DNA from: a virus
DNA: 40,941 bases
Virus record (IMG/VR): IMGVR_UViG_3300049847_000484
Span: 1 to 40,941 of that record
Strand: one strand, 5' to 3'
This document shows, piece after piece, positions 2,190 through 10,824 of the stretch. Numbering within the stretch: the first letter of the stretch is position 1; each line of letters begins with the position of its first letter. A program made the translations under genes and the position numbers. The notes under the pieces are model-generated. The model was not told the DNA's origin and did not search any database. It saw only the letters and a list, made by a program, of their open reading frames with translations.

Positions 2190-2520
2190 CCTCACCCCTT
2201 CTTCAGCGTCTGCTTCGGCCGTTGGGCCAGTTGTCCAGTTGCAAACCCTATTATTGATCCATATGGACTTTTAGCGTTTTTACGGGTGTTTTTAGGGGTT
2301 TTTTGATTTGAGCTTTTTTTAGAAAGTTTATAGTATTTTCAGTGTCCCAAGTGTCCCAAAACTGAAATCCAGATAAATATCATGGCTTTACGTGGGCCAG
2401 ATGTGGGTCGGATGCGGTCCAGATGGGTCAGATGACGCACCACGTTGGACAACTTCTGTCATGACGCACCGCGACCCATCTGGCCCAAGTGGCCCACATC
2501 TGGACCACATCTGGACCACT
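2190..2520. other. Convergent intergenic region: T-rich DNA and CAGATG-type repeats, candidate origin or terminator
   Basis: This 331-base region lies between the convergent recombinase and primase genes. No gene is credible here. Bases 2270-2335 contain T-runs on the plus strand (TTTTT to TTTTTTT, repeatedly broken by G/A), an AT-rich stretch that could melt easily. Bases 2341-2358 hold AGTGTCCCA twice in tandem. Bases 2393-2514 hold the repeat cluster listed separately. Repeats beside an AT-rich segment and next to the replicative primase-helicase are the usual look of a replication origin; a two-way transcription terminator is also possible. Confidence 0.5.
2393..2514. repeat. Inverted array of CCAGATG repeats with large imperfect stem
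   Basis: CCAGATG or near copies occur forward at 2397-2403, 2419-2425 and 2428-2434 (TCAGATG). The reverse complement CATCTGG occurs at 2477-2483, 2497-2503 and 2508-2514. TGACGCACC is present twice, at 2433-2441 and 2462-2470. The segment 2393-2410 can pair with 2472-2487 over 16 base pairs with a 2-base bulge. The array stops seven bases before the primase stop codon. Confidence 0.65.
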
Positions 2521-4713
2521 TTACTCGTCGGAGTGGTTGGTTAGTCGGAAGTGGCGGATGGCTTTAGGCCTGCGGCCACCCAAGCGCGGTAGTTTGTACG
2601 TACAAGCTGAATCGGCAGGTACGCCTAGGGCCACCACGCCATCTCGGACGTAGCCAACAAGCCTCTTTGTAAAAGCCTCCCTGCTTACGGGGAACCTCTT
2701 TCCATCCTCGCACCATGAGACGTAGACTCTGTAGATTGAGTCCCTGTCTGTGTCCCATTCTGGCTCAGTGGTGACGACGCCAGCCTCATGCATCCAGCCG
2801 TAAACCGTGCAGCTTGAAAGCTTGTAGTCCTCTTTGAGCTCAGCCGATCTATACGAGGTGCTGAGTTTTCTGGACTCTACCAGCTTCCTGGCTACCGGAA
2901 TAATGTCGTTGATAATGCCTGAGTATTCAGCTCGCAGCTTAGCGTCCAGCTCGGTGTCTCTCTCCTGCTCAGAGAAGTACCTAGTGAATGGCAGGAACAC
3001 GAGCCTGTCACTGAGTCCGTGGCTTGCGTCTTTGAAGACAGGCATTTCGTTGCAGGCGAACACGAACCTAGCCCGTACGGTCATCGCGTATTCGGGTTTG
3101 TTCTTGTTTGCTGCTTGCAGCTGCCCGCCACCCACTGCTGTCTTGAAGAACTCAGAGTTGATACTGTCGGACGGTGTTTCCTCACATACGTTGAGGATTT
3201 TAGCGTCCATCGTCACGACCGAGAATGGCCGATCGAGCATCTTGAGAGGGACGATCGAGCAGTTCTCTGGGCCACATAGTCCACGAAGCACATTGAGTAG
3301 CGTGCTCTTGCCGTTGCGACCTGTGCCATAGAGACAGAAGGCTCTATGCAGGAACGGATCTCCCCCGATCAGCGTGTATGCAAACATCTCTTTGGTCAGC
3401 GTTATCAGCTCCAAGTCGCCGTTGAAGATATCTCTAAGGAAAGCCTGCCACGTGGGAGCCGTGGCGTTCGGATCGTAGCAGATAGGGAGCGTGTACCTCA
3501 TACGGTACTCGGCCGAATGCGGAACGTGGTTGCCGTTCTTAACGTTGAGCACGCCGCTGGCTAGATTGATCAGCCCTGGCACTGGATCTCCGAAGAAGTC
3601 CTCGACGTAGTTCTTGCCTCGAGCGATGCGTTTGAACTGATCCAGCGCTGAAGGATCGACACTGTCCTTGGTCAGACGCATGATGAAGTTCTCGAACTTC
3701 TTGTCGTTGATGAATTCAAAGCGGCCCTGCTTCGAGTTGTAGAAGTAATCGCCTGACTCTTCGCTTACGTGAAATAGGCTTCCCTTCAGAAACGTAGCCA
3801 TGGCGTAGAGATCGGGCTTCCCGCTAGATTTGAAAAACGAAAGGCCCTCGATCATCTCCTCTAGGGAGAGATTCGAAACGTCTCTGTGTTTTGTCGGAAG
3901 AGCTGGGAACTCTGGCTCTATGTTGTTGGGAGTGATGTGCTCGACGTACTTCCATTTGAGATTGATCATCCGCTGCGCTGCTTGCACAACGCTTAGCCCA
4001 GAGTTTTCGGGATCTGTCCTAAACCAAGAGTTCTCGCCGAAGAACTTCTCATCCAGCTCAATGATCTGCTCAACGGCTTCCTCTTTACTAAGCCCTCTCA
4101 TATACATGCCGTAGGCCTTACCTGAGAGTTCGCTCTGTCTACCTTTCGCTCCGACGATCTGTTTGCCGTCTGCGGTCTTGCCAGTTCTAAGCGGTCTAGT
4201 TTGAGGCTCCTCCTCGAGGATCTTCATCAGTTCAGCGAAGAGCTCTCTTGAAAGAACGGGGAGCTCTTCGACAGGCAGGACTTCAGACCCGACATCCCAG
4301 CGATACTCTTTGCGGATCTCGGGATGAATAGAGGGAGGAATGACTGTGAAGCTGTTGTCGCCGAGAAAGTCGATGTCGCCGACGCTGAATCGTTCTGGAG
4401 GGAAGCTTCCGGGTCCTACGAATACGCTCATTCCTTTCTTGCCGATTTTTCGCATCGGGGAGATGGAGCGAAGGAACGCCATGATCCTCGGGTTATCTGA
4501 ATCTAGGTCAATGACCTGGCATCCTGCTGGTCCGCAAGCGACGCCGATGTTGTGATCAGGCCAGCGGTGTGCGAGCGAGTCCACCTCTGTCTCTGTTTGG
4601 CGGATGTGACATGCCAGCTGCCACTTCGTGAGCGCGCCTTTCTTGCCGTAAGCGGGCAGCACATTGTAACCCAGCTCCCAGAACTTGTGTGCGTGAATAC
4701 CAAAAGGTCCCAT
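2521..4713 (-). CDS. Replicative primase-helicase (Prim-Pol/AEP domain plus D5/SF3 helicase)
   Basis: This protein should make primers and unwind DNA at the fork. Residues 1-150 form a bifunctional primase/polymerase (archaeo-eukaryotic primase) domain: GYNVLP near the start, catalytic acids in VIDLDSD (Asp69, Asp71), and GDNSFTVIPPSIHP around 118-131. The middle is a D5_N-type region. Residues 455-580 are an SF3 helicase ATPase: Walker A GTGRNGKST (463-471), acidic Walker B in KILNVCEE (505-512), sensor Asn555 in FACNEMP, and arginine finger in GLSDR (Arg570). The C-terminus is a likely winged helix. The length of 730 aa is normal for P4/D5-type phage primases. The ribosome site is GGGGAGG. 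The gene lies behind a small HTH gene and ends at the repeat array at 2393-2514. No DNA polymerase is encoded, so elongation probably uses the host replisome. Confidence 0.92.
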   Translation of the reverse strand: MGPFGIHAHKFWELGYNVLPAYGKKGALTKWQLACHIRQTETEVDSLAHRWPDHNIGVACGPAGCQVIDLDSDNPRIMAFLRSISPMRKIGKKGMSVFVGPGSFPPERFSVGDIDFLGDNSFTVIPPSIHPEIRKEYRWDVGSEVLPVEELPVLSRELFAELMKILEEEPQTRPLRTGKTADGKQIVGAKGRQSELSGKAYGMYMRGLSKEEAVEQIIELDEKFFGENSWFRTDPENSGLSVVQAAQRMINLKWKYVEHITPNNIEPEFPALPTKHRDVSNLSLEEMIEGLSFFKSSGKPDLYAMATFLKGSLFHVSEESGDYFYNSKQGRFEFINDKKFENFIMRLTKDSVDPSALDQFKRIARGKNYVEDFFGDPVPGLINLASGVLNVKNGNHVPHSAEYRMRYTLPICYDPNATAPTWQAFLRDIFNGDLELITLTKEMFAYTLIGGDPFLHRAFCLYGTGRNGKSTLLNVLRGLCGPENCSIVPLKMLDRPFSVVTMDAKILNVCEETPSDSINSEFFKTAVGGGQLQAANKNKPEYAMTVRARFVFACNEMPVFKDASHGLSDRLVFLPFTRYFSEQERDTELDAKLRAEYSGIINDIIPVARKLVESRKLSTSYRSAELKEDYKLSSCTVYGWMHEAGVVTTEPEWDTDRDSIYRVYVSWCEDGKRFPVSREAFTKRLVGYVRDGVVALGVPADSACTYKLPRLGGRRPKAIRHFRLTNHSDE

Positions 4714-5657: not shown

Positions 5658-6070
5658 GTATTTGGGAAGACGTAAAAATTGAAGATTCTGTTATCGGCGA
5701 AGGTATCCATCACGGCAGAATCACCGCTGCTGCAGTTAAAAAAACGAAGGCCAGTGACACTTATATCGAGCTCAAGATGAAGTTCGATGACTTCGATGGA
5801 TTCGTTTGGGATCGATTGAATCTCACTCACGAAAAGACTGCTGAGATCTCTCGTAAGAGTGTGAAGATGATTTTGGCTGGGGCGTACTTCACAGTGCCAC
5901 CGGCGATCGAGACCTACGAAGAGCTCGCAGGTGGTCTCTCTAACATTCCTGTGGCTGTGAAGATCAAGCACAAGGGCACAGATGAAGATGGCCGCATGAA
6001 GCTTGGCATCTACTACGCTCCTGAAAAAGTTCCGGCCGCGTACAAGACGGCCTATGGACAAAAGTACTAG
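5654..6070 (+). CDS. SSB-like single-stranded DNA binding protein
   Basis: This 138-aa protein looks like an OB-fold protein of the DUF669/phage SSB kind: an early beta segment (GIHHGRITAAAVKKT), a mixed charged middle, and a strand pair near the end (IPVAVKIKHKG, MKLGIYYAPEK). It lacks the acidic tail of cellular SSB. The assignment rests mostly on context: it overlaps the Sak4-like ATPase (ATGA) and precedes a helicase and nucleases. Its last 17 bases overlap the helicase start. If right, it coats ssDNA at phage forks and recruits the annealing ATPase. Confidence 0.6.
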   Translation: MSIWEDVKIEDSVIGEGIHHGRITAAAVKKTKASDTYIELKMKFDDFDGFVWDRLNLTHEKTAEISRKSVKMILAGAYFTVPPAIETYEELAGGLSNIPVAVKIKHKGTDEDGRMKLGIYYAPEKVPAAYKTAYGQKY

Positions 6071-8645
6071 CCTTAAAAAATTGCGTGACTACCAGGAGCG
6101 CGTTGTTGATGCCTCCACGTCCTCACTGACTGAGCCTGGTAGTCGCGCTCTGATTGTTGCCTCGACTGGGGCGGGTAAGACGGTGTGCCTGTCACACATC
6201 ATCGCTCGCCTCGGTCTACGCACATTGGTACTGGCTCACCGCATCCCGCTCATCAGGCAGTTAGCGTCAACCATTGGGGGTAGTTCCATTGCTTGCGCTT
6301 CGCTTGGTGAGCCGGATGTGGGTGGGCATGTTGTTGTGGGCACAGTGCAGACGCTTGCATCAAGAGATGCAGGGCCTCGTGATTTGATCGTGATTGATGA
6401 GTGTCACAGATTCGATGAGGATAGCGCTTACGCAGCTGTCCTGGATAAGTACCCATCCGCTCGAGTGCTTGGATGCACTGCTACTCCGTGGAGATCTGAT
6501 GGTCTCATCTACGGGCCGCAGAAGTTCTGGCCAGAGCCGTGTGCTCAGATCGGTATCGATGAGCTCACAGACGCTGGACACCTGGTGCGGGCAAGACTCA
6601 TGGAGCCTAGAGGTGCGTTCACTGAAGCTGATCTAGCTGAGGTGTCCATCCGTGCTGGAGAGTACGCAGCAAACGAAGTAGATAAGCTCATGGTTCCCCA
6701 GGTTGTGAGCAGACAGTGCGACGCTGTTGTCGCCGCTGCTCGTGACCGCAGGTGCATCGTGTGGTTGTGCTCATCGATCGAGCACGCATCGCACACAGCA
6801 ACGACTCTCAACGCTATGGGTGAGGTGGCTGCCGAGTACCACAGTGGCGTGACGATGGACGATAGGGATGCAGCGCTGAACGCTCGTCACATCGTATCGG
6901 TGCTGGCTCTAAGCGAGGGTTTCGACCACCCGATCGTTGACACCGTGGTGCTAGCTCGCCCCATCCGCTCATCACTGCTCTACGTGCAAGCAGTGGGGCG
7001 TGGGCTTCGAACCTATCCTGGTAAGACCGATTGTATCGCGGCTGGGTCCCTTGTTCTTACTGATCATGGGTTAGTCCCTATTGAAAACGTTAGCAGCGAT
7101 ATGCTCTTGTGGGACGGCGAAGAGTTCGTTAGCCATGGGGGAGCTATCCGCAAAGGCAAGCAGGAGGTCATTTCTTATGCAGGAGTTACGGCAACATCTG
7201 ACCATAAGGTATGGACTCCCAGAGGGTGGCTCTCTTTGGCAGAAGCCGCAAGAACCAAGGCAGGGATCGCTGTTACAGAAAGCCGTGGGGAAGGAGTCAA
7301 ACTTTCTAAGGGCGTTTGGAGCAATGACATTCTTGGACTCTACCGGCAAAAGACGTGGTTATTTATTAGTCGAATGTACTCGATGTTCAACGATCTCATG
7401 GAAGGCCTACGACAGTTTTTATCAAAACAAGGCTGGATGTCGCAAATGCGGCAATCCAAGGATGGTTCCGAAGTGGCTTTACCAGCGTTGTGGAGCCGCT
7501 TCCGATCGGTGCAAGAACCCCTGCAATTCTCGATACATCAATTATGGAGGCAGGGGGGTAAAATTTCTCTTCAGCTCTCCCACAGAAATGGCTCTTTGGA
7601 TCTTGCAAAATCTGGGCAGCCCTCCGAGCAAGACGGCTCAAATAGACAGAGTCAACAACAATGGTCACTATCGACCTGGCAATATCCGTTGGGCCAGCCC
7701 ACAAGTGAATGTCTGCAACAGAAGACGCAGAAGACTGACCCCCGCCATGCACCGGTTCAGGATGAAATATCCGGAAGTTCGTTACGCGGACGCCACTCTT
7801 ATACATTTAATTGGACAAGGATTTTCAGAGGAAGACGTTTTATACAAGTGGGGGCAGCCTTCAAACAAACCAAAAGGGAAGTATGGGACATTCTCAACGC
7901 CGGACCCAGAAATCGCTTCACTGTAAATGGCAGGCTCGTCTCTAACTGCACAGTAATTGACTTCGGTCGCTGCATCCGTGAGTGTGGTCCGCTCAACGAT
8001 CCGGTGATTCCAAACACACCCAAGACTCTGTGCATGGAAGCCAGGCCCTACCGCGTCGTCCGCTGTGATGAGTGTGGACTGATATACTTTGTGACTCGCA
8101 CCGAGCAGGCTAAGTGCGCCGACTGTGGGCATGTCCCACAGTGGGAACCTCCCACCTCACTACGAGGGACGGCGGACACGGGTGCTGAGCTCTACAAACC
8201 AAAGAGTGCTGCGACCTCTCTGCACACCTTTGAGTGCGAGGGGCTTGAGCATATCGGCACCTTCAGCGGTGGGCTCTGGATGAAGGTGGTCGGAGTGCGA
8301 GTGCATAAAAACGATTTTATGCAGGCAATTATGCAACTGGTTGACGACCAAGGCTTACGGCTCACGCTCACTATTACTTTTTCAAATCCAGGTCCGCCGC
8401 CAATGGTCAATCAAGGCATGTGGTTTGGGCGGATGAAAATCTACAAGAAGTGGCTCAAGGCTTTTGGTCTTGATTCAGGAGTGCAGTTCCCGCGCATCAG
8501 AGTGATGCCAGAGCGAGTGCATCTGCAGGTGCATGCAAGGATGCTCAGAGAAGCGTGGGCTGATGAGTGGGAAGGCTCGCAGGAAGTGATCCCGTATAAG
8601 GAAGGGTTCATGGACGGGGCGAGTGAACAGGTGGGGTTATTTTAG
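6054..8645 (+). CDS. SF2 DEAD/DEAH-type DNA helicase interrupted by an intein
   Basis: This is a superfamily 2 helicase of the ResIII/UvrB-like class. The Q-motif region is LRDYQERVV. Walker A is STGAGKT (37-43), Walker B is VIDECH, motif III is CTATPWR, and motif VI is QAVGRGLR. A zinc ribbon with two CxxCG knuckles (CDECG, CADCG) follows motif VI. An intein of 305 residues (7032-7946) sits between GKTD and CTVIDFGR; removing it leaves 558 aa, a normal size. ATG 6054 (MDKSTSLKKL) is preferred over an upstream in-frame start because homology begins there; it overlaps the SSB-like gene by 17 bases. The likely role is branch migration or fork remodelling in phage recombination. Confidence 0.9.
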   Translation: MDKSTSLKKLRDYQERVVDASTSSLTEPGSRALIVASTGAGKTVCLSHIIARLGLRTLVLAHRIPLIRQLASTIGGSSIACASLGEPDVGGHVVVGTVQTLASRDAGPRDLIVIDECHRFDEDSAYAAVLDKYPSARVLGCTATPWRSDGLIYGPQKFWPEPCAQIGIDELTDAGHLVRARLMEPRGAFTEADLAEVSIRAGEYAANEVDKLMVPQVVSRQCDAVVAAARDRRCIVWLCSSIEHASHTATTLNAMGEVAAEYHSGVTMDDRDAALNARHIVSVLALSEGFDHPIVDTVVLARPIRSSLLYVQAVGRGLRTYPGKTDCIAAGSLVLTDHGLVPIENVSSDMLLWDGEEFVSHGGAIRKGKQEVISYAGVTATSDHKVWTPRGWLSLAEAARTKAGIAVTESRGEGVKLSKGVWSNDILGLYRQKTWLFISRMYSMFNDLMEGLRQFLSKQGWMSQMRQSKDGSEVALPALWSRFRSVQEPLQFSIHQLWRQGGKISLQLSHRNGSLDLAKSGQPSEQDGSNRQSQQQWSLSTWQYPLGQPTSECLQQKTQKTDPRHAPVQDEISGSSLRGRHSYTFNWTRIFRGRRFIQVGAAFKQTKREVWDILNAGPRNRFTVNGRLVSNCTVIDFGRCIRECGPLNDPVIPNTPKTLCMEARPYRVVRCDECGLIYFVTRTEQAKCADCGHVPQWEPPTSLRGTADTGAELYKPKSAATSLHTFECEGLEHIGTFSGGLWMKVVGVRVHKNDFMQAIMQLVDDQGLRLTLTITFSNPGPPPMVNQGMWFGRMKIYKKWLKAFGLDSGVQFPRIRVMPERVHLQVHARMLREAWADEWEGSQEVIPYKEGFMDGASEQVGLF
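7032..7946 (+). mobile_element. Intein in the helicase gene, with open central region
   Basis: This is a protein-splicing element of 305 residues. Block A is CIAAGSLVLTDHG with splice Cys1. Block B is TSDHKVWTPRGW, with Thr55 and His58 in the TxxH pattern. The C-terminal splicing block is VWDILNAGPRNRF then NGRLVSN, ending in Asn305 and followed by Cys+1 of the helicase. The usual penultimate His is Ser304, a known tolerated change. Insertion is just after motif VI of the helicase, a conserved functional site typical for inteins. The middle (about residues 98-290) has no LAGLIDADG or HNH motif in this frame and is rich in Q, S, W and R, like a shadow translation; the real nuclease is in the +1 frame. 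Confidence 0.9.
7324..7926 (+). CDS. HNH homing endonuclease nested out of frame inside the intein
   Basis: In the +1 frame relative to the helicase and intein lies a complete HNH endonuclease of about 200 aa. The N-terminal part has two CxxC knuckles (CTRC at 18-21, CRKC at 39-42). Then come RCKNP, YINYGGRGVKF and the nuclease core IDRVNNNGHYRPGNIRWAS, a pattern typical of phage free-standing HNH homing enzymes. ATG 7324 is preferred: family-like sequence starts there and GGAG lies two bases upstream, which is close. An earlier in-frame ATG at 7081 would only add shadow sequence from the splicing domain. The TAA at 7924-7926 falls inside the C-terminal splicing block. It presumably cuts intein-less helicase alleles and spreads the element. 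Confidence 0.82.
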   Translation: MTFLDSTGKRRGYLLVECTRCSTISWKAYDSFYQNKAGCRKCGNPRMVPKWLYQRCGAASDRCKNPCNSRYINYGGRGVKFLFSSPTEMALWILQNLGSPPSKTAQIDRVNNNGHYRPGNIRWASPQVNVCNRRRRRLTPAMHRFRMKYPEVRYADATLIHLIGQGFSEEDVLYKWGQPSNKPKGKYGTFSTPDPEIASL

Positions 8646-10150: not shown

Positions 10151-10654
10151 GTGCTAGACCCTTACTCTCAGCAATACGCTAAGATTAAGTATTCAGCCAA
10201 GACTAGAGGCATCTCGTTTGAGCTTAGTCTTGATGAGTTTATAAATGTCGTCCGTGAGCCCTGCTTCTTATGCGGGCGTCGTGTGATGACTGATTCAGTC
10301 AACGGCAAGAAAATCGATTCACTGATTATGTGTGGCATCGACCGAGTCGACTCGTCGGTGGGCTATGTGGCCGGTAACGTCGAGGCTGCGTGTATTGATT
10401 GCAACAACATCAAAGGGACCTATTCGATAGAGGAGCTTCTATGTCTGCTGATGCGGGTTCTTCCGAGACTCATGAGATACGTTGGCAGGAAGCTAGCAGA
10501 GCTACCCGGAAGAGCTGGGAGAAGAGACTTGGTAAAAGCGTTAGAATCTCCCGACATGATTATGAGATCATCTTTGTACGCAAACTCATGCTGGAAGAGA
10601 AAGAGCTCGAAGGGCTCTGTGACCAAGCGGAGAAAAAGATCTACGTATCGCTAG
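10151..10654 (+). CDS. Free-standing HNH endonuclease overlapping the next gene
   Basis: This is an HNH nuclease with the zinc-finger form of the fold: PCFLCGRR, then CGIDRVDSSVGYVAGNVEAACIDCNNIKG, where four cysteines hold the zinc and Asp/Asn residues form the active site. The start is GTG at 10151 with no well-spaced ribosome site. The recognisable domain ends near residue 100; the remaining 65 residues are very basic and overlap, in another frame, the first 214 bases of the metallopeptidase gene, so they look like read-through into the neighbour. It was probably inserted as a homing gene between the 102-aa gene and the peptidase. Confidence 0.78.
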   Translation: MLDPYSQQYAKIKYSAKTRGISFELSLDEFINVVREPCFLCGRRVMTDSVNGKKIDSLIMCGIDRVDSSVGYVAGNVEAACIDCNNIKGTYSIEELLCLLMRVLPRLMRYVGRKLAELPGRAGRRDLVKALESPDMIMRSSLYANSCWKRKSSKGSVTKRRKRSTYR

Positions 10655-10824
10655 ACGGTCAGGACCCGGCGCAAACGCTCGTGCACGAAATCGTTCACGC
10701 CGAGATCGGCGAGGCTGGTATTAGGCAACACCCTTCATGGTGTCTTTCCCTTGAGGAGATTGTTTGCGAGGTTTTTGCGAACTCGATGACTGCTCACTTT
10801 CAACTAAAGACTCGCGCTTCCTAG
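10441..10824 (+). CDS. Zinc metallopeptidase-like protein (HExxH, ImmA/SprT-type)
   Basis: The motif HEIVH at residues 82-86 is a zinc-peptidase active site, and a downstream Glu in LSLEEIVCEVFANSM is a plausible third ligand, as in ImmA/IrrE or SprT-like proteins. A preceding segment (KIYVSLDGQDPAQTL) has the usual strand-then-helix lead. ATG 10441 follows GAGGAG with a good spacer, so it is preferred; the gene gives 127 aa. Its first 214 bases lie inside the HNH gene in another frame. It is the last gene of the rightward operon and its 3' end overlaps a leftward gene by 104 bases. Its substrate is unknown; cleavage of a repressor is one possibility. Confidence 0.68.
   Translation: MSADAGSSETHEIRWQEASRATRKSWEKRLGKSVRISRHDYEIIFVRKLMLEEKELEGLCDQAEKKIYVSLDGQDPAQTLVHEIVHAEIGEAGIRQHPSWCLSLEEIVCEVFANSMTAHFQLKTRAS

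What the first reader, a model, noticed from the sequence alone, without database searches (positions are those of the whole stretch)
7032..7946. Intein whose homing endonuclease is encoded out of frame inside it
The helicase and intein frame is open without a stop across 7032-7946, with good splicing blocks at both ends. In the same DNA, the +1 frame encodes a complete HNH endonuclease (7324-7926; knuckles CTRC and CRKC, YINYGGRGVKF, IDRVNNNGHYRPGN). In ordinary inteins the endonuclease is in frame and spliced out as part of the intein. Here the intein frame over the nuclease looks like a shadow translation (Q/S/W/R-rich), yet it has been kept open for about 600 bases. This means a long dual-coding region in which one frame must stay stop-free for splicing and the other must make a nuclease. 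Evolution by insertion of a free-standing HNH gene into a mini-intein is a simple origin. I know of no described system with this exact layout.
Basis: partly seen in the sequence, partly recalled or inferred. Interest (0 to 1): 0.92.

Follow-up and report, generated by a model that had tools for sequence, protein, structure and literature searches.

The report
Intein hiding an overlapping nuclease gene
A phage helicase gene is interrupted by a self-splicing protein insert whose DNA also encodes, in a shifted reading frame, the nuclease that probably spreads the insert; more than 100 related inserts share this double-coded design, and a few have broken into split, two-part versions.

Summary
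Window 7032-7946 is a class-1-like intein (305 aa, C1...N305|C+1) near motif VI of a phage SF2 helicase; an intein-less homologue shows the empty site. The same DNA encodes an HNH protein in the +1 frame, probably from ATG 7177 behind AGGAGG (not 7324) to TAA 7926, so about 750 of 915 nt are dual-coding, including splicing block B. It is not an assembly artefact: I found 89 distinct inteins with HNH in +1 and open intein frame, 16 with it in +2, none with it in frame, and 22 mini-inteins without it. In 16 close pairs the splicing blocks evolve as intein (pN/pS 0.22); the overlap evolves as HNH (0.20), not as intein (1.16). AlphaFold gives a confident HINT fold at the two ends and disorder between. 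So the intein frame is merely kept open while the other frame carries the nuclease. Six loci (five distinct) are fractured into split-intein halves around the same HNH gene. Prior art is partial: APSE-1 P45/P46 (overlap visible in the record), Sodalis SO-1 (mislabelled intron), and the 2025 ShiLan element (hidden HNH, no splicing domain). A 2025 preprint on actinophage inteins may describe the layout; I could not read it.

The parts
6054..7031 (+). N-extein: SF2 (ResIII/RadD-like) helicase
   Evidence: Pfam ResIII 4e-22, Helicase_C 6e-5; phrog_16 DNA helicase 1.5e-66
7032..7946 (+). Intein, 305 aa, inserted at GKTD|CTVID
   Evidence: Open frame; conserved blocks; empty-site homologue L169 GKDD|CLILD; top Foldseek hits are inteins, best Ssp DnaB mini-intein 8e-5
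7032..7301 (+). N-terminal splicing half (blocks A and B; residues 1-90, C1, T55, H58)
   Evidence: pLDDT 95-98 over residues 1-90; profile of the N-half matches only solved inteins, best E 1.4e-3
7869..7946 (+). C-terminal splicing half (blocks F and G: VWDILNAGPRNRFTVNGRLVSN), residues 280-305
   Evidence: pLDDT about 96-98; D286 and N305 invariant in A5
7162..7168 (+). AGGAGGT, Shine-Dalgarno-like, embedded in intein codons CAG GAG GTC
   Evidence: Duplex energy -9.8 kcal/mol; about 4% of ATGs in these loci reach -8
7177..7926 (+). Overlapping HNH gene, +1 frame, 249 aa (ATG 7177, TAA 7924-7926); alternative starts GTG 7285 and ATG 7324
   Evidence: phrog_3377 and phrog_374 about 1e-18; AF2 mean pLDDT 86.8; pN/pS 0.20 across 16 pairs of homologues
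7375..7449 (+). Two CxxC knuckles of the HNH protein (C67/C70, C88/C91)
   Evidence: Invariant or nearly so in the 50-member alignment A4
7642..7683 (+). HNH core IDRVNNNGHYRPGN
   Evidence: D157, R158, Y165 and N169 invariant or nearly so in A4
7947..8645 (+). C-extein of the helicase, starting with the +1 Cys
   Evidence: Continues the helicase frame; aligns across the junction with L169

Best explanation
This is a mobile intein with a dual-coding middle. Ribosomes reading the helicase frame make N-extein, HINT half 1, a long unstructured filler, HINT half 2 and C-extein. The HINT halves fold together and splice themselves and the filler out, restoring the helicase (inferred; splicing not tested). 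A second translation event, most likely internal initiation at ATG 7177 behind AGGAGG (inferred), makes the 249-aa HNH protein from the +1 frame. That nuclease presumably cuts intein-less helicase alleles so that repair copies the intein in (homing; inferred). Selection acts on the splicing blocks in the intein frame and on protein sequence in the HNH frame, and requires only that the filler stay stop-free (shown by comparative data). The filler is the by-product of the nuclease gene, not a domain in its own right.
For: Both frames are open and homologous over a wide family: 89 distinct +1 and 16 distinct +2 open inteins, none with an in-frame HNH. Free-standing HNH relatives carry 10.3 stops per 100 codons in the frame that is stop-free in +1 inteins. 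Synonymous recoding: P(0 stops) < 1/2000 for the window and small for nearly all loci. Substitutions by host codon position: splicing blocks 50/35/131, overlap 441/169/150, chi-square p about 2e-31; pN/pS 0.22 in blocks, 1.16 in the overlap read as intein, 0.20 read as HNH. AF2: ends confident, middle disordered; Foldseek matches mini-inteins. HNH modelled at pLDDT 86.8. Mini-inteins lacking the HNH, some with remnants (Javan422), show the filler is dispensable. Precise empty site. Inteins more alike than the flanking exteins in three pairs (L004/L005 99.4% vs 94.9/81.1%; L003/L022; L002/L004), as transfer predicts.
Against: No expression, splicing or cleavage data. In the window the F-block His is Asn (N294) and the penultimate His is Ser; Ser-Asn occurs in 19 of 157 family members, so it is tolerated but may slow splicing. 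The HNH lacks the usual catalytic His (DRV/DRID), as do its relatives, and its model has no significant PDB fold match, so nuclease activity rests on profile annotation. ATG at this position with a strong Shine-Dalgarno occurs in 46 of 89 full inteins but also in about 10 of 22 mini-inteins, so the signal is partly dictated by the KEVI-Y amino acids; some inteins lack it. In L024/L025 the intein is less similar than its exteins.
Confidence: 0.88

Rival explanations
1. Ordinary intein with an in-frame HNH nuclease whose frame was shifted by two compensating indels, sequencing errors or pseudogene decay.
For: Frameshifted copies exist in the family (L216; L018 looks frameshifted).
Against: Same offset in 89 distinct inteins from independent records; no in-frame version found; the overlap evolves under purifying selection in the HNH frame.
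Confidence: 0.02
2. The HNH is made by ribosomal frameshifting from the helicase frame, giving an N-extein/IntN/HNH fusion, rather than by internal initiation.
For: The HNH frame is open upstream of ATG 7177 as far as 7075; several homologues lack a strong internal start.
Against: A good AGGAGG-ATG is present in the window; no conserved slippery site was noticed (not searched systematically).
Confidence: 0.12
3. ShiLan-type element: a hidden HNH gene in an open but non-splicing insertion that stays in the host protein.
For: Same hidden-HNH logic (PMC11855218).
Against: Here both splicing halves are present, conserved, under purifying selection and predicted as HINT; the insertion lies in a conserved helicase motif, where a 305-aa insert should be harmful (inference).
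Confidence: 0.04
4. Group I intron carrying an HNH ORF, as the Sodalis SO-1 homologue is annotated.
For: Annotation of gp38/gp39 in NC_013600.
Against: No Rfam match in 6500-8600 even at E <= 1; frame open throughout; intein motifs at both ends.
Confidence: 0.01
5. The intein is real but the HNH copy in this phage is no longer expressed or active; the architecture is a relic here.
For: Mini-inteins show that HNH loss is common; the HNH start region of the window aligns poorly.
Against: The 249-codon frame is intact; core residues and zinc knuckles are kept.
Confidence: 0.1

Closest known systems
ShiLan element (out-of-frame HNH in actinophage DNA methylase; Arsenault et al. 2025, PMC11855218)
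   Same: HNH in another frame of an insertion that stays open in the host frame; sporadic distribution; internal start proposed
   Different: ShiLan has no intein splicing motifs or fold and is argued not to splice; here a HINT domain is split around the overlap
APSE-1 DNA polymerase P45 with HNH P46 (GenBank NC_000935)
   Same: Same architecture: +1 HNH inside an intein in the polymerase, annotated as overlapping CDS
   Different: Different HNH lineage; I found no paper in the library that discusses the overlap
Salmonella and Dhillonvirus 'intein-containing DNA polymerase' phages and Sodalis SO-1 gp38/gp39
   Same: Intein with HNH in another frame
   Different: HNH in +2 rather than +1; separate HNH clade; SO-1 annotated as a type I intron
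Canonical HNH inteins (e.g. Synechocystis GyrB; from memory)
   Same: HINT domain plus HNH nuclease
   Different: The nuclease there is in frame and part of the intein polypeptide
Fractured genes with split inteins and an endonuclease gene between the halves (Dassa et al. 2009, from memory)
   Same: Relatives L028 and L031-L035 have IntN, HNH and IntC ORFs in a row
   Different: The window is contiguous; in these relatives the HNH overlaps IntN from the same ATG position
Gosselin et al. 2025 preprint, Actinobacteriophage inteins (10.1101/2025.01.02.630785)
   Same: Cited by the ShiLan paper for overlapping reading frames; title mentions non-canonical architecture
   Different: Not held in the library; how far it anticipates this finding is unknown

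Membership tests
Intein (class 1-like) | Block A nucleophile Cys1 and block B TxxH | tested here: met
   C1, T55, H58; invariant in A5
Intein (class 1-like) | C-terminal Asn and +1 Cys/Ser/Thr | tested here: met
   N305|C; C..C in 151 and C..S in 4 of 157 family members
Intein (class 1-like) | F-block and penultimate (G-block) His | tested here: not met
   N294 and S304 in the window; Ser-Asn ends recur in the family. Not strictly defining: inteins without penultimate His that splice are known (from memory)
Intein (class 1-like) | HINT fold | tested here: met
   AF2 ends at pLDDT 95-98; Foldseek to mini-inteins 8e-5
Intein (class 1-like) | Precise insertion in a conserved extein motif with intein-less alleles | tested here: met
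   L169 empty site
Intein (class 1-like) | Autocatalytic splicing | not testable with these tools
   Needs expression
Canonical large intein | Homing endonuclease in frame with the HINT halves | tested here: not met
   HNH in +1; 0 of 105 distinct open HNH-bearing relatives in frame
HNH homing endonuclease | Profile match and zinc knuckles | tested here: met
   phrog_3377/374 about 1e-18; CxxC pairs
HNH homing endonuclease | Catalytic His of the HNH motif | tested here: not met
   DRV/DRID in place of DH in the window and its relatives
HNH homing endonuclease | Cuts the intein-less site and promotes homing | tested here: inconclusive
   Intein more conserved than exteins in three pairs, not in a fourth; cleavage not testable
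ShiLan-type insertion | Absence of a splicing domain | tested here: not met
   Splicing domain present
Group I intron | Intron core structure | tested here: not met
   No Rfam match
Split intein / fractured gene | Halves on separate ORFs | tested here: not met
   Window frame continuous; met only in L028, L031-L035

The most novel reading that the evidence does not exclude
A whole, largely unrecognised class of phage inteins never carries its homing nuclease in frame: the nuclease gene overlaps the intein in +1 (at least twice independently) or +2, the intein frame is kept merely open, and fracture of such elements yields natural split inteins with the HNH gene between the halves.
Probability: 0.55. 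Interest if true: 0.86.

Novelty: new variant of a known kind. Interest (0 to 1): 0.76.

Why it matters
Inteins are taught as one polypeptide with the nuclease fused in frame. Here the nuclease is uncoupled from the spliced protein and can be expressed, lost or replaced independently. That gives a long systematic gene overlap (about 750 nt) replicated in more than 100 distinct sequences, well suited to measuring dual-coding constraint. It also offers a testable route to split inteins, whose origin is debated, and exposes a hidden nuclease gene missed in records annotated simply as DNA polymerase or helicase.

Tried and rejected
blastn of the helicase/intein against phages found nothing, and a single-sequence HNH scan of viral contigs found nothing; alignment queries were needed. 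Pfam recognises neither frame of the window's intein. Fold search of the HNH model gave no significant match, so HNH identity rests on PHROGs. I first read the conserved AGGAGG-ATG as selected for HNH initiation; mini-inteins carry it at a similar rate (about 10/22 vs 46/89), so I keep it only as the best start in the window. Group I intron rejected. Compensating indels rejected. The direction dual-coding to split is not resolved by the HNH tree: the split clade sits near the base of the main +1 group with weak support.

Full report
OBSERVATION. The helicase ORF 6054-8645 (SF2, ResIII/RadD-like) is continuous through an insertion at GRGLRTYPGKTD|CTVIDF. The insertion, 7032-7946, starts with Cys and ends with Asn before Cys. 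An intein-less homologue in a viral contig (L169) aligns across the junction as GRGTRLSDGKDD|CLILDYG, so the boundaries are exact. In the +1 frame of the same DNA lies an HNH-type protein: phrog_3377 7e-19 and phrog_374 9e-19 for the part from 7324.

START OF THE HNH GENE. Homologues align upstream of 7324. In the window the strongest start in the HNH frame is ATG 7177, formed by the last two bases of the Tyr49 codon and the first base of the next (TAT|GCA), preceded by AGGAGGT at 7162-7168 (duplex energy -9.8 kcal/mol; about 4% of ATGs in these loci reach -8). The gene then runs to TAA 7924-7926 (249 aa) and overlaps about 750 of the intein's 915 nt, including splicing block B. ATG at this position occurs in 65 of 89 distinct +1 inteins and has a strong Shine-Dalgarno in 46, but mini-inteins without the gene carry it at a similar rate, so amino-acid constraint explains part of it. 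Internal initiation is inferred.

A FAMILY, NOT AN ODDITY. tblastn already showed Streptococcus Javan phages and Gardnerella phage AB1 matching in both frames with the same offset, in DNA polymerase I rather than a helicase. Scans of viral contigs and of prokaryote genomes, classified with HMMs for the two splicing halves and the HNH, gave these distinct intein sequences: 89 with HNH in +1 and open intein frame, 16 with HNH in +2 and open frame, 22 mini-inteins (113-175 aa) without HNH, 5 fractured, 1 frameshifted, and none with an in-frame HNH. The counts depend on which contigs the scans return, and openness is part of the class definition; the informative fact is that contiguous HNH-bearing inteins with a closed frame or an in-frame HNH were essentially absent. 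Hosts are SF2 helicases, a DnaB-like replicative helicase, and several types of family A DNA polymerase at several sites. [quoted passage not shown]

NOT CHANCE. For each locus I recoded the HNH synonymously (host codon usage, or shuffling its own codons) and counted stops in the intein frame. The window gave none stop-free in 2000 under either null (means 10.8 and 13.9 stops). Nearly all loci were at or below about 0.01; L012 (one null), L024 and L025 were the weak ones, 0.02-0.06. Free-standing HNH relatives have 10.3 stops per 100 codons in that frame.

WHICH FRAME IS UNDER SELECTION. In 16 independent close pairs, substitutions in the splicing blocks fall on host codon positions 1/2/3 as 50/35/131, in the overlap as 441/169/150 (chi-square p about 2e-31). 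Host position 1 is HNH position 3. Nei-Gojobori pN/pS is 0.22 in the splicing blocks, 1.16 in the overlap read as intein, and 0.20 in the overlap read as HNH. The method ignores the dependence between frames, but the contrast is large. So the intein is selected at its ends, the HNH in the middle, and the intein frame there only for being stop-free.

STRUCTURE. AlphaFold2 on the intein gives pLDDT 95-98 for residues 1-90 and about 96-98 for 280-305, and mostly below 55 between. Foldseek matches mini-inteins, best Ssp DnaB 8e-5. The N-half profile hits only solved inteins. The HNH protein is modelled at mean pLDDT 86.8, with its first 30 residues, which overlap block B, weaker. No significant PDB fold match was found for it.

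HOW IT WORKS. Shown: both frames conserved, each selected where expected; empty site; natural mini-inteins. Inferred: splicing of the helicase with removal of the filler; separate translation of HNH; HNH-driven homing. Mobility has comparative support: in three pairs the intein is more similar than the flanking polymerase. Caveats: window residues N294 and S304 replace the usual F- and G-block His (Ser-Asn in 19 of 157 members), and the HNH lacks the classical His.

ORIGINS AND SPLIT INTEINS. In the HNH tree (quick method, many weak nodes) the +2 set forms one group (97), most +1 form another, and the APSE-type +1 HNHs nest among free-standing HNHs, so an out-of-frame HNH probably arose at least three times. 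Six loci (L028, L031-L035) are fractured: the polymerase N-part with IntN ends at a stop, the HNH starts at the same ATG position inside IntN, and the C-half has its own start; in L031/L032 (GTG or ATG 4396) this has a Shine-Dalgarno-like sequence (-8.8, -8.7) and overlaps the HNH stop. This is the layout of a split intein with its nuclease gene between the halves. Dual-coding giving rise to split is attractive, because the HNH no longer needs the continuous frame, but the tree does not fix the direction.

PRIOR ART. ShiLan (PMC11855218) describes hidden out-of-frame HNHs but argues against an intein. APSE-1 P46 within P45 and SO-1 gp39 within gp38 show the overlap in public records. The preprint 10.1101/2025.01.02.630785 is cited for overlapping frames in actinophages and could not be read; nor could Gorbalenya 1998. 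I therefore call this a new variant of a known kind.

Noticed in passing
L028, L031-L035 (IntN stop near aa 103; C-half start L032:4396): Fractured DNA polymerase genes: split intein halves with the HNH gene between, HNH starting at ATG49 inside IntN; in L031/L032 its stop overlaps or abuts the C-half start.
   Followed up: partly
L140:3501-5378, L198:736-2616: Two inteins in one polymerase: a mini-intein and, at KFVEN|C or KIVEN|C, a second intein with a different out-of-frame (+1) HNH.
   Followed up: partly
L006 (Sodalis phage SO-1, NC_013600) 2501-3397: gp38/gp39 annotated as type I self-splicing intron; the sequence shows an intein with HNH in the +2 frame.
   Followed up: yes
L219 (APSE-1, NC_000935) 3001-3918: P46 HNH overlaps the P45 polymerase intein; the deposited P46 gene starts inside the HNH match, so it covers only part of the HNH frame.
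   Followed up: partly
window 10151-10654 and 10399-10824: Free-standing HNH/endonuclease VII-like gene (phrog_3118 3e-13) overlapping the next ORF by about 250 nt in another frame.
   Followed up: no
L216 (Eubacterium plexicaudatum), L018: Copies with an apparent frameshift in the N-terminal splicing half: decay or sequencing error.
   Followed up: no
phrog_26005 (matches window intein and L014, L016, L029, L036 inteins): PHROG family of unknown function matches this intein's N-half in several host genes and is probably an unlabelled intein family.
   Followed up: partly
L008/L210 (Javan422, Streptococcus porci) 168-aa intein: Mini-intein keeps remnants of the HNH shadow sequence, suggesting in-frame deletion of the HNH core.
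   Followed up: partly
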